64,000 bases of DNA. Origin: an uncultured Spirochaetaceae bacterium. GTDB taxonomy: Bacteria; Spirochaetota; Spirochaetia; Sphaerochaetales; Sphaerochaetaceae. Each line of letters starts with the position of its first letter. Position 1 is the first letter of the stretch. Position numbers and translations under genes: made by a program. The stretch covers positions 1-64,000 of the forward strand of contig CALXYL010000004.1 in the NCBI GenBank assembly GCA_944392985.1. Reading direction: 5' to 3'. Shown here piece after piece: positions 28,813 through 32,696 of the stretch. The notes below the pieces were generated by a model that saw nothing but the letters and a program-made list of their open reading frames with translations, was not told the origin of the DNA and did no database searches.

Positions 28813-28915
28813 GAATAATCATAAGAGCATCCTTCCTGGAAAGGAGAAATTGCTTGACGTTTATCTACCGGGTGGGAGTAAAGTTTGAGGCATAAGAAAA
28901 CAGGGAGTCCGTTTG

Positions 28916-29806
28916 ATGTTTTTCAGAAAGAAGAAGGAATATCGGCCTGAGGGTCTGGATAGAATTGCGGCTGATATTCAGAGAAAATACAGTTCAGAGG
29001 CATATCAGAAGTATCCGGAATTTGAGAAAGATCTGAGATACCGGATTGATGACGATCTTGATTATCAACTCAGCAGAATACTGTACAGAAGTCCGCTTTA
29101 CGAGTTCTCAATCGAACCTAACACGACTATTACGCCGTCGAATTTCATTCATGATGGCTTTTATCCATACTACACAGTGCAGGATGTCAAAATACTTTTC
29201 ATAGGGCGGGAAGCCTATCAGATGGATGCAAACAACTATATTGACGTTATGTTTCCTCAGATCCAAAGCGGGGTGACGAGAAGGAATGCAAATTCGAAAG
29301 GAAAACCTATAGATGAAGATCCATTTTATGCTGCACAGATGTATATCGCTTACTCCATACTTCATGATTGCATGCCATATGAACAGGTTCCTTGGGCAGA
29401 GGATTTCTGTTCTTCCTTCGGTACAGAGAACGGCATAAGTTTTGCTTTCATGAATATGAATAAATTCTCATCTTGGAGTAATACATGGAATACGAACTGG
29501 GAATTGATGGATGCATATATTGAGACTGCTGTTAATGACAATACCAACCATATTGAGGACGAAATATGTAATCTAAAGCCTGACATCATCATCTCGATGG
29601 GGTTTGAATACGACCGCCTTGCAGCTTTGGGTGGCATTCTTACGGAGAAATTGGAAAACAGTTCTTCAATTACGAACGTCCATCATCTGACCATGTTGGG
29701 ACAGATGATCCCTGTCCTTGATACTTATCATTTCTCGAAACCTGGAAAACTCGATGCAATCTGCAAGGATGTGATTGCAAGAGCTAAAGAGGAATTAGGA
29801 CTGTGA
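28916..29806 (+). CDS. Uracil-DNA-glycosylase-like protein (tentative)
   Basis: 296 residues, no signal peptide. VKILFIGREAYQMDANNY near 100, NLKPDIIISMGFEYDRLAALG near 220 and VLDTYHFSKPGKLDAIC near 270 are laid out like the first, middle and last motifs of the uracil-DNA glycosylase superfamily, but without catalytic residues I can assign. That is an inference from pattern only. Codon use is A+T-richer than in neighbouring core genes, suggesting acquisition. The start is the ATG at 28916 behind GGGAG. It is coupled to the next gene (GTGA). Confidence 0.5.
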   Translation: MFFRKKKEYRPEGLDRIAADIQRKYSSEAYQKYPEFEKDLRYRIDDDLDYQLSRILYRSPLYEFSIEPNTTITPSNFIHDGFYPYYTVQDVKILFIGREAYQMDANNYIDVMFPQIQSGVTRRNANSKGKPIDEDPFYAAQMYIAYSILHDCMPYEQVPWAEDFCSSFGTENGISFAFMNMNKFSSWSNTWNTNWELMDAYIETAVNDNTNHIEDEICNLKPDIIISMGFEYDRLAALGGILTEKLENSSSITNVHHLTMLGQMIPVLDTYHFSKPGKLDAICKDVIARAKEELGL

Positions 29807-30162
29807 CATTCAAGCATAATTTCACATATAAGGTTATCGTGTTCGGTATTCCCATCATTCTTTTGATTGCCTCAGTAGGTACTGCAATCTTTGTAGCAGC
29901 TCCTTGGATTATAATAGGGATAATCAAGTGCTGCTATGACAGAATCTATATAGACGAGTCCGTTGTAAGTATCAAATACCTCAGCATTCGAGGCTTTATT
30001 AATGAGTCCTGGTCTCTTCGCAGAGTGAGGGAGGTAAAGAGAAGAAGCATCGGATTTGGGTTCAATGAAATCCTGATTCAGGGAACATATAATACAAGTT
30101 ACCTGATGGGATGTGTTAAACGCTCAAAACAACTCGTCAGATATTATGAAAGCCTACTTTAG
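29803..30162 (+). CDS. Small membrane protein
   Basis: 119 residues from a GTG overlapping the preceding stop. Two hydrophobic segments (about 10-28 and 30-46) are followed by a cytosolic basic domain of about 70 residues. It resembles PH-like membrane-anchored small proteins but no family is certain. It is probably co-expressed with the UDG-like gene. Confidence 0.5.
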   Translation: MTFKHNFTYKVIVFGIPIILLIASVGTAIFVAAPWIIIGIIKCCYDRIYIDESVVSIKYLSIRGFINESWSLRRVREVKRRSIGFGFNEILIQGTYNTSYLMGCVKRSKQLVRYYESLL

Positions 30163-30335
30163 AATCTTGTTGTATCTAAGTCAGAAATCACACCATCGGT
30201 CGGCAGTCAATGCTGGCTGTTTTTGCTATCTCTAGCCCTTAAGTACATCATCCCTGTCGTGAATCAAACAGCTGGTTTCTTCCTTATCATGATTGTTTTC
30301 CCCAGAGAAGTTTTCTTCCGCGGGGAAGATTTCCC

Positions 30336-30366
30336 TTGACGATTATGAACGGGGGGGGGGTACCTT
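30336..30366 (+). promoter_or_regulatory. Putative phase-variable promoter with a G10 spacer tract
   Basis: TTGACG (30336-30341) is separated from a poor -10 (TACCTT, 30361-30366) by 19 bp, of which ten are an uninterrupted G run (30351-30360). Loss of two G would give a 17-bp spacer. Tracts of this sort in promoters drive on/off switching in Neisseria porA and Treponema tpr genes. Confidence 0.6.
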
Positions 30367-30397
30367 CTGAATAGAAATTCTTTTCTGGAGGTTCACT

Positions 30398-31126
30398 ATG
30401 AAGAAGATTTTCGCAGTTCTGCTTGCTGTCATGATGCTCTTTGCATTCGTGGCATGTGAGAATGATACGCCGACGGTTGATGACGGAAAGCCAGAGAACG
30501 CGGTAGTGTATGTAACGTTCGAGAACAATGATTGGGAAGGAATCATTGTTGATCCAGACGCAGAAGAGACTTCAAGTTTTACTGTTGCTGATGGTGTTCT
30601 TTCCTTCACTGCCGGTGGTGCGTACTTCGGATACTCAGATGTTGACCCGAAGCTGCTTCCAACAGCAGAGAAGAGCTATGAGATGTCCTATCAGCTCACT
30701 GTCACAGCTCCTGAGGATGGAAAGACAACTTCCCTCAAGTTCTCCAACCCGCTTGGATCTGGTGGAGTAGGTGAGTATCTTACTCTGACACTGGCAGATG
30801 GAAAGATCTCCGCAAAGGCAACTGAAGCAAATAAGGTTGACGCGATGGCTGTAGAGCTTGGCAACGAATTCACGATCGAAGGAGATTCAGTTGTTGTTGA
30901 CGTGACTGTCCTTTATGAGTTTGTTTCCGAAGGTCAGTACAAGGTATCACTCTCAGTTGCTTATGATGGTGAAGAGGCTTGTGCACCAGTAACGGCAACA
31001 GGTGGTGCTGCTGATACCAATACGGTATCCTGGTCGTTCTATGGAGGAGCGGATGGAGCTGGTGAAATGGCAACTGCAACACTCAACTCCTTTGTTGTTC
31101 TTGAGAACGCTGTAGCAGAAGCATAA
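30398..31126 (+). CDS. Surface lipoprotein behind a poly-G promoter
   Basis: 242 residues. The signal peptide ends in a lipobox (FAFVAC, Cys20). The mature part is acidic, Ala/Thr/Gly-rich and beta-strand-like, with no motif I know; residues 40-235 resemble a concanavalin-like sandwich in strand pattern only. GGAGG lies 8 nt before the ATG. The upstream G10 tract suggests switchable expression. A convergent lipoprotein gene follows. Confidence 0.75.
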   Translation: MKKIFAVLLAVMMLFAFVACENDTPTVDDGKPENAVVYVTFENNDWEGIIVDPDAEETSSFTVADGVLSFTAGGAYFGYSDVDPKLLPTAEKSYEMSYQLTVTAPEDGKTTSLKFSNPLGSGGVGEYLTLTLADGKISAKATEANKVDAMAVELGNEFTIEGDSVVVDVTVLYEFVSEGQYKVSLSVAYDGEEACAPVTATGGAADTNTVSWSFYGGADGAGEMATATLNSFVVLENAVAEA

Positions 31127-31235
31127 GGTATTCTTCGGAGATTGGACAATTCCATCCCCGATTCATAAAGAAGGCCCGTCAGAAGTGATCAGGAATACCT
31201 GACAGCTTCATTGGCGGGCCTCATTCTGTCTGAGT

Positions 31236-32628
31236 TCACTCAGATTGTGTTGTTCCGTTCGCGGCTTCCTCAAAATCCTGCTTGAAAACTTCATGTTCCT
31301 GGATTGTTATTCCGTAGGGCCAGTACGTTGATCTGCCATAGGTATCATGCAATGCGGCATAGGTGAAGTTCGCGATGAAGTTTCCGTTGTCCAATCCGCA
31401 GTTCTCAAGATGCATCCGGATAAGCTCCTTCTGCAGTTCTTCATCTGTTTCTACCTTTGATGGAAGATTCTCGTAGAAATGACCGAATCCGGTATTGTCC
31501 CATGTTGCCTTTGTGACATCGAGGAACACGCCCTGTGTACTTCCAGGACCATCATTATAGGGATTCGTGAATGTCGCGGAGGCTGTATGGCTGTTCTTCC
31601 AGCTGTAGAGGACAGGATCCAGACTCATGCCATCGAAAATGGGTTCTTCTTTCCTCATTGCATTATCGAAGTTGAGTTCCTCCAATGAGGCATCCTTGAA
31701 TTCCTGATATGACCGATATGGTCTGTGCAGATCGTTGTTGCCATCTGCATACATGAGATTATTTGCATTCTCGTAGAATTCCCTGATAACCCCATAAATA
31801 AATCCAACACCGACACTACTTGCTTCTTCTCTGGTATCTATCAGTCTATTTCCGTTGCTATCCTTTTCGGAGATGCATTCCGCAACAATCAAACTGTAAA
31901 AATCATCAGTTCCATAGGTCATGTCAGGGCGGAACACGGATGCAAAAAGATCCTTGCTGCTGGTTCCGGAGAGGTAAGACCGGATGAATTTCACACTCCC
32001 ATTCCCGTTGAACCTTATGGTATCTGCAAATGCGTTGCACTCTGTGGCACCAGCGCGATCAAGCTGTCCGAATTCAAAGCGACCGATCTGGTTGTGGTTC
32101 CTGACAGGGATGTCATTGTATTCAAGCGAGATCAGGGAAGTTGTCTGCGGATCAATATATGTGACCATGACCATCTGGCGGTATGAGAACACCTTTTCTT
32201 CGAAGCTGTAGTAATACTGGATGAATCCGACATTATTTCCGTTCGCATATATATCGTACACCAGCGTGAAGCCATCTCTGTTCTCTGCCCAGACCGCTGT
32301 GTCGGGACTGACCTCGAAGCCAAGCACGGTGAAGGAACCCTTTTCGTTGGCGTCCTCGATGATCTCATTGAAATTATTCTTCTTGACGTTCTCGTAGCCA
32401 ATCATCACGGGAAGGGCCTGCATCACGCCGGAAGAGCGCCACTTCTCTCCATCCCATACCTCTCCGGTCGGCATGTCGATCAAGCCGCGCTGGTTCAATG
32501 CAGAGCTTTCTCTGATTTCCGAGAATACGGGAAGCGTGTAATCCTTGGGTGTGTCACTCCCCCCCCATGCTACAGGAAGAAAGGGCAAGAGCCCCTGCCA
32601 GAATAAGCATGAATGCAGTCTTTCTCAT
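31236..32628 (-). pseudogene. Phase-OFF surface lipoprotein gene (G8 tract after the lipobox)
   Basis: The ATG at 32628 (GAGG 8 nt upstream) encodes a lipoprotein signal ending LALSSC; then a run of eight G (32566-32559) leads to a TGA after 24 codons. The remaining 440-codon frame is open but offset by one base. Removing one G (or adding two) joins signal and body into a 463-residue lipoprotein. This is better read as a switched-off contingency gene than as a dead one, since the downstream frame has no other lesion. The body is a large beta-rich protein of unknown family with a HPYRSYQEFKDASLEELNFD-like helical part. Confidence 0.75.
32559..32566 (-). repeat. G8 homopolymer in the coding region
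   Basis: Eight C on the + strand, eight G on the coding strand, spanning Met-Gly-Gly codons directly behind the lipidated cysteine. Slippage here changes the reading frame of the lipoprotein gene. Confidence 0.85.
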
Positions 32629-32696
32629 ATGATTAACCTCAACTGATCAGAGGTTATCATGATGGGAGGGGCCTGTCATCTCAATGGTGTTCTTCC

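What the first reader, a model, noticed from the sequence alone, without database searches (positions are those of the whole stretch)
30336..30400. G10 tract in a promoter spacer upstream of a lipoprotein gene
TTGACG and the candidate -10 are 19 bp apart, ten of which are G. Changing the tract by two bases would restore 17 bp. The same design makes Neisseria porA and several Treponema tpr genes switch by slipped-strand mispairing.
Basis: partly seen in the sequence, partly recalled or inferred. Interest (0 to 1): 0.72.

Follow-up and report, generated by a model that had tools for sequence, protein, structure and literature searches.

The report
Slippable G-tract switch on gut-spirochaete lipoproteins
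A run of ten Gs between the two halves of a promoter turns out to be one of about a dozen near-copies in this gut spirochaete, repeated across its genus and almost always in front of a lipoprotein gene, so these bacteria probably flip such proteins on and off by miscopying the G run.

Summary
Confirmed, and much larger than reported. The G10 (30351-30360) sits between TTGACG and TACCTT, 19 bp apart, ahead of a lipoprotein gene. The genome has 11 TTGAC-N-G6+-TA sites, none for the reversed pattern; 40 genomes of the genus (inferred Ca. Ornithospirochaeta) have 229 against 5. Of 84 sites with a readable gene, 81 precede a strict lipobox, against 15 of 336 background ORFs. T at -10 position 6, outside the search pattern, occurs in 89/90. 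Near-identical promoters within a genome differ in tract length as often as unrelated ones (12/17 vs 64%) although their flanks differ by only 4-6%: indirect evidence of slippage. The conserved unit is a ~130-bp cassette, -35 to lipobox, often fused to unrelated mature proteins. A neighbouring lipoprotein (32628-31236, minus) carries a coding G8 that leaves it out of frame; both lie in an island absent from four relatives. Closest known: T. pallidum TP0126, Neisseria porA, M. hyorhinis Vlp. Switching was not observed directly, and the modal spacer of 19 (16 in some other genera) does not fit a simple '17 = ON' rule. New variant of a known kind.

The parts
30336..30341 (+). -35 hexamer TTGACG
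   Evidence: TTGAC also present in most promoters of homologues found by protein search, blind to promoter
30351..30360 (+). G10 tract filling the 3' part of the 19-bp spacer (30342-30360)
   Evidence: length varies between near-identical sister cassettes in related genomes
30361..30366 (+). -10 hexamer TACCTT, abutting the tract
   Evidence: T at position 6 in 89/90 aligned sites, although position 6 was not in the search pattern
30373..30373 (+). predicted transcription start (A)
   Evidence: A at the 13th base after the tract in 66/90 sites; inference, not mapped
30387..30391 (+). ribosome-binding site GGAGG
   Evidence: sequence
30398..31126 (+). lipoprotein gene lipoA, 242 aa, signal peptide ending at Cys20; mature part predicted lectin-like beta-sandwich (low to moderate confidence)
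30336..30457 (+). conserved promoter-leader cassette, -35 to lipobox Cys codon
   Evidence: identity profile with sharp edges in sister cassettes of related genomes
30197..30221 (+). terminator-like hairpin after the upstream gene
   Evidence: consensus match only
31236..32628 (-). second lipoprotein gene lipoB: ATG at 32628, frame closed at 32554 after 24 codons, remainder open in another frame
32559..32566 (-). G8 tract just after lipoB's lipobox; as assembled, out of frame
28813..32696 (.). 3.9-kb accessory island between the SpoU-family and LonB-like genes, holding both lipoproteins
   Evidence: absent from four relatives in which these genes lie next to each other; GC 45.8% in the 28-32 kb block against 53-54% on either side

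Best explanation
The G10 tract is a simple-sequence contingency switch in a sigma70-type promoter. Slipped-strand mispairing adds or removes Gs, changing the -35/-10 spacer and hence transcription of the lipoprotein gene. It is one member of a set of about a dozen independently slipping promoters per genome, each carried on a shared ~130-bp cassette (-35, G tract, -10, 5' UTR, RBS, lipoprotein signal peptide) that fronts different mature proteins. Independent slippage would give each cell a different combination of lipoproteins. A second class of tract, inside coding sequence just after the signal peptide (lipoB G8), would switch by frameshift. Shown: anatomy, recurrence, lipoprotein association, promoter conservation, length differences between near-identical promoters, cassette mosaicism. 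Inferred: slippage within a population, effect of length on transcription, which lengths are ON, surface exposure, the benefit to the cell.
For:: 11 sites in the genome (0 control), 229 vs 5 across 40 genomes of the genus; strict lipobox 81/84 vs 15/336, P=8e-67.: -10 T6 in 89/90 and start-site A in 66/90, both outside the search pattern; 17 of 19 homologues found by protein alone have a G7 or longer tract upstream; near-identical promoters differ in tract length in 12/17 (11/16) pairs, as often as unrelated pairs (64%); two pairs have wholly identical flanks and tracts of 8/9 and 9/10; cassette identity 0.93/0.85/0.83 falls to background on both sides; homologues of lipoB carry tracts at other places (coding G9, promoter G9, upstream C10).
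Against: No reads, second isolate of the species, or expression data. Modal spacer 19 here and 16 elsewhere, neither the canonical 17. Tract length stays near 9 whatever the rest of the spacer, except between N9 and N10 sites, where it compensates, so spacing is not tuned across the board. MutS and MutL are present, so the genome is not an obvious mismatch-repair mutator. Assemblies are metagenome-derived, where homopolymer length is a consensus. Surface location not tested.
Confidence: 0.8

Rival explanations
1. The G tract is a fixed structural element or a protein-binding site of a lipoprotein regulon, co-regulating these genes without switching.
For: Strong conservation of tract, preceding AC and spacer mode 19; compensation between N9/G10 and N10/G9; shared leader peptides suggest a common regulon.
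Against: Tract length ranges from 7 to 12 in the genus and differs between promoters with identical flanks; the same design with N7+G9 (spacer 16) or G12-G17 occurs in other genera; coding tracts in the same kind of gene cannot be explained by a promoter-binding protein.
Confidence: 0.1
2. The tracts are slippery but function as a slow evolutionary tuning knob of promoter strength rather than as an on/off switch.
For: Lengths cluster at 9-10 with spacers of 18-19; porA in the literature shows high to no expression with tract length (PMC7864442), so graded responses are possible.
Against: A coding tract out of frame (lipoB G8) is all-or-none; length memory is lost in promoters otherwise only about 4% diverged.
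Confidence: 0.08
3. Chance or assembly artefact.
For: Metagenome-derived assemblies; a dinucleotide shuffle of the window alone gives similar numbers of G8 words.
Against: Bimodal run-length distribution, 229:5 enrichment over the reversed pattern, lipoprotein association at P=8e-67.
Confidence: 0.02

Closest known systems
Treponema pallidum TP0126 (OmpW homologue) promoter
   Same: Poly-G between -35 and -10 in a spirochaete; length alters transcription, with an optimum reported at a 17-nt spacer (PMC7864442).
   Different: There a single OmpW-type protein; here about a dozen lipoprotein promoters on a shared cassette, modal spacer 19, different genus.
Neisseria meningitidis porA promoter
   Same: Poly-G in the -35/-10 spacer controls transcription (PMC7864442).
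   Different: One porin gene, not a repeated promoter-leader cassette.
Mycoplasma hyorhinis Vlp lipoprotein family
   Same: Several lipoprotein genes, each switched by a homopolymer in its promoter region (PMC10502178); conserved 5' region with divergent mature parts (from memory).
   Different: Poly-A, not poly-G; Mollicute; vlp genes form a cluster (from memory), whereas here they are scattered over contigs, with bodies of unrelated sequence.
T. pallidum tprE/G/J/L
   Same: Poly-G upstream of outer-membrane protein genes, variable in vivo (tprL 7-11 G, mostly 9; PMC7864442).
   Different: The tprL tract overlaps the -10 rather than lying in the spacer; putative porins, not lipoproteins.

Membership tests
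Homopolymer-spacer phase-variable promoter (porA/TP0126 type) | Homopolymer lies between -35 and -10 | tested here: met
Homopolymer-spacer phase-variable promoter (porA/TP0126 type) | Tract length differs between otherwise near-identical copies | tested here: met
   paralogous promoters within related genomes; not tested within one locus of one population
Homopolymer-spacer phase-variable promoter (porA/TP0126 type) | Tract length varies between cells of one clone at one locus | not testable with these tools
   no reads or sister isolates available
Homopolymer-spacer phase-variable promoter (porA/TP0126 type) | Transcription depends on tract length | not testable with these tools
   needs reporter assay or RNA
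Homopolymer-spacer phase-variable promoter (porA/TP0126 type) | Spacers scatter around the 17-bp optimum | tested here: inconclusive
   15 of 171 sites at 17 and 38 at 18, but the mode is 19 (81)
Vlp-type multigene lipoprotein switching system | Several lipoprotein genes in one genome, each with its own homopolymer promoter | tested here: met
Vlp-type multigene lipoprotein switching system | Conserved 5' region, divergent mature parts | tested here: met
Vlp-type multigene lipoprotein switching system | Poly-A tract, clustered genes, Mollicute host | tested here: not met
   poly-G, spread over contigs C1, C2, C3, C4, C6, C7, C18, spirochaete; so it works like Vlp but is not a member

The most novel reading that the evidence does not exclude
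A transferable switch module: a ~130-bp promoter-plus-signal-peptide cassette carrying the slippable G tract recombines onto unrelated secreted proteins, so any protein that lands behind it becomes a lipoprotein with stochastic on/off expression; a genus of gut spirochaetes assembles its surface repertoire this way.
Probability: 0.45. Interest if true: 0.8.

Novelty: new variant of a known kind. Interest (0 to 1): 0.68.

Why it matters
It would extend slipped-strand surface switching, known in spirochaetes mainly from the syphilis agent, to a genus of uncultured gut spirochaetes, using one standardised promoter-leader part. Strains could be typed for lipoprotein ON/OFF states directly from metagenomic reads. 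It offers a natural series of G-tract promoters with spacers from 14 to 22 bp for asking how RNA polymerase reads G-rich spacers, and why lineages settle at 16 or 19 rather than 17. No paper in the open-access library searched mentions both Sphaerochaeta and phase variation.

Tried and rejected
Dinucleotide-shuffle significance in the window alone: inconclusive. Generic sigma70 scan missed the promoter because it allows only 16-18 nt spacers. Pfam found no domain in lipoA, lipoB or most sister lipoproteins (one clear beta-helix, two weak pectate-lyase-like adhesive hits). Compensation between tract and remaining spacer as proof of spacing selection: present only between N9 and N10 (P<0.001), absent over N7-N11, so not used as proof. 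RNA structure of the leader: nothing unusual (z -1.0). Mismatch-repair loss as the cause of unstable tracts: rejected, MutS and MutL present.

Full report
WHAT IS THERE. The window is contig C4:1-64000 of a 1.96-Mb, 39-contig, 96%-complete spirochaete assembly. Its genus was inferred, not told: the window's LonB-like protease is 77% identical to that of Candidatus Ornithospirochaeta stercoravium, more than to two members of its own genus group (64% and 54%). At 30336 stands TTGACG, then 19 bp ending in ten Gs (30351-30360), then TACCTT, a GGAGG and the ATG of a 242-aa lipoprotein.

IS IT MORE THAN CHANCE? In the window alone a dinucleotide shuffle gives comparable numbers of G8 words. In 449 kb of the genome, however, G/C runs fall to one at length 7 and then rebound: 9 runs of 9 or more against 0.5 expected (sample partly chosen for tracts). 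The whole genome has 18 runs of 9-10 Gs. Ten or eleven lie in the same kind of promoter before a lipoprotein gene; most of the others lie in or just before the early part of genes for exported proteins.

A FAMILY OF PROMOTERS. TTGAC-N9-17-G6-TA occurs 11 times in this genome and never for the reversed pattern. In 40 genomes of the genus the totals are 229 and 5 (my sums). In 394 genomes of the class a stricter pattern occurs in 94, densest in this genus, with others in the same family and in other families. I fetched about 80 sites from nine relatives rich in sites plus the eleven here. Of 84 with a readable gene, 81 encode a strict lipoprotein signal, against 15 of 336 background ORFs. The search pattern fixed only TTGAC, the Gs and TA. 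Outside it, T is found at -10 position 6 in 89 of 90 sites and A at the 13th base in 66 of 90, where transcription should start. A check that did not use the promoter at all: of 19 homologues of the window's lipoprotein found by protein search, 17 have a G7 or longer tract upstream.

DOES THE TRACT SLIP? No reads or second isolate could be reached. Indirect evidence: within-genome promoter pairs with at least 90% identical flanks differ in tract length in 12 of 17 cases, as often as pairs with 50-70% identity (64%). By a second criterion it is 11 of 16, with 0.039 substitutions per bp in the flanks and any other indel in only 4 pairs. Two pairs have identical flanks and tracts of 8 vs 9 and 9 vs 10. 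Tract length is therefore forgotten faster than the surrounding sequence changes.

WHICH LENGTH IS ON? Unknown. Spacers in the genus: 16 (10), 17 (15), 18 (38), 19 (81), 20 (11) of 171. In several other genera the mode is 16, with N7+G9; in one genome of another family tracts reach 12-17 Gs with spacers of 17-21. The tract is about 9 Gs whatever the rest of the spacer. Between N9 and N10 sites it compensates to hold 19 (within-genome permutation P<0.001), but not over the wider range. A first-base G-to-C change in a ten-base slot would give the same pattern.

A SHARED CASSETTE. In 42 within-genome pairs with similar 5' regions, DNA identity is 0.93 from -35 to the tract, 0.85 from -10 to ATG and 0.83 over the signal peptide, then 0.64 and 0.59 in the mature part and 0.6 further upstream, which is background. 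Of 25 pairs with a 5' module at least 80% identical, 19 have mature parts without significant similarity. One pair (L259/L266) is 99% alike up to the lipobox, differs in tract length (9/10) and encodes unrelated bodies. Recombination of a promoter-leader cassette onto different bodies explains this best; very fast divergence of the body alone is harder to reconcile with nearly identical UTRs. Several sites lie near contig ends, as expected for repeats.

THE NEIGHBOUR. Next to it, on the minus strand, a second lipoprotein (ATG 32628) has G8 right after its lipobox (32559-32566); as assembled the frame closes after 24 codons while the remaining 430 or so codons are open in another frame. Whether it is in frame depends on tract length modulo three. 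Homologues in relatives carry tracts at other places: coding G9, also out of frame, in L345; promoter G9 behind TTGACA in L346; an upstream C10 in L344. Both lipoproteins lie in a 3.9-kb island (28813-32696) of lower GC, missing from four relatives where the flanking genes are adjacent.

WHAT THE PROTEINS MAY BE. LipoA has no Pfam domain. A model from eight relatives (pLDDT 63, pTM 0.66) resembles concanavalin-like beta-sandwiches such as legume lectins and family-7 alginate lyases. Confidence is limited, and the fold alone does not give a function. Sister lipoproteins include a beta-helix and two weak adhesive pectate-lyase-like hits.

KNOWN RELATIVES. Poly-G between -35 and -10 controlling transcription is known for porA and T. 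pallidum TP0126; 76% of 17 T. pallidum poly-G tracts tested were clearly variable (PMC7864442). Vlp of M. hyorhinis switches several lipoprotein genes by promoter poly-A (PMC10502178). I found no paper joining Sphaerochaeta and phase variation, and the three papers naming Ornithospirochaeta appear to be surveys or name lists, judged from titles and abstracts only. The mechanism is a known kind; the standardised, genus-wide promoter-leader cassette is the new variant.

LIMITS. The fetched relatives were chosen for richness in sites, sites within a genome are related to each other, and assembled tract lengths are consensus values.

Noticed in passing
L014 and L015 (G000 C7 near 5391 and 7660): Two near-identical exported proteins, each with an in-frame G9 just after the signal peptide: a duplicated coding contingency locus.
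   Followed up: partly
L001 (G000 C1:14061): Lipoprotein with an in-frame G9 right after the lipobox (CSDPMGGG), the in-frame counterpart of lipoB.
   Followed up: no
L022 (C29:6350) and L012 (C6:3505): G9 at the end of the signal peptide of an exported protein of at least 523 aa, and G9 within a 592-aa exported protein.
   Followed up: no
G389 (another family), e.g. L329, L339, L372: Same promoter design with much longer tracts (G12-G17), mostly with TATAAT or similar -10, several before lipoproteins.
   Followed up: partly
   Followed up: partly
L044, L221, L223, L288: Interrupted tracts (for example GAGGGGGGG) that may be locked or decaying switches.
   Followed up: no
window 28913-30162: Two genes (297 and 119 aa) without a Pfam match at the start of the accessory island.
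   Followed up: no
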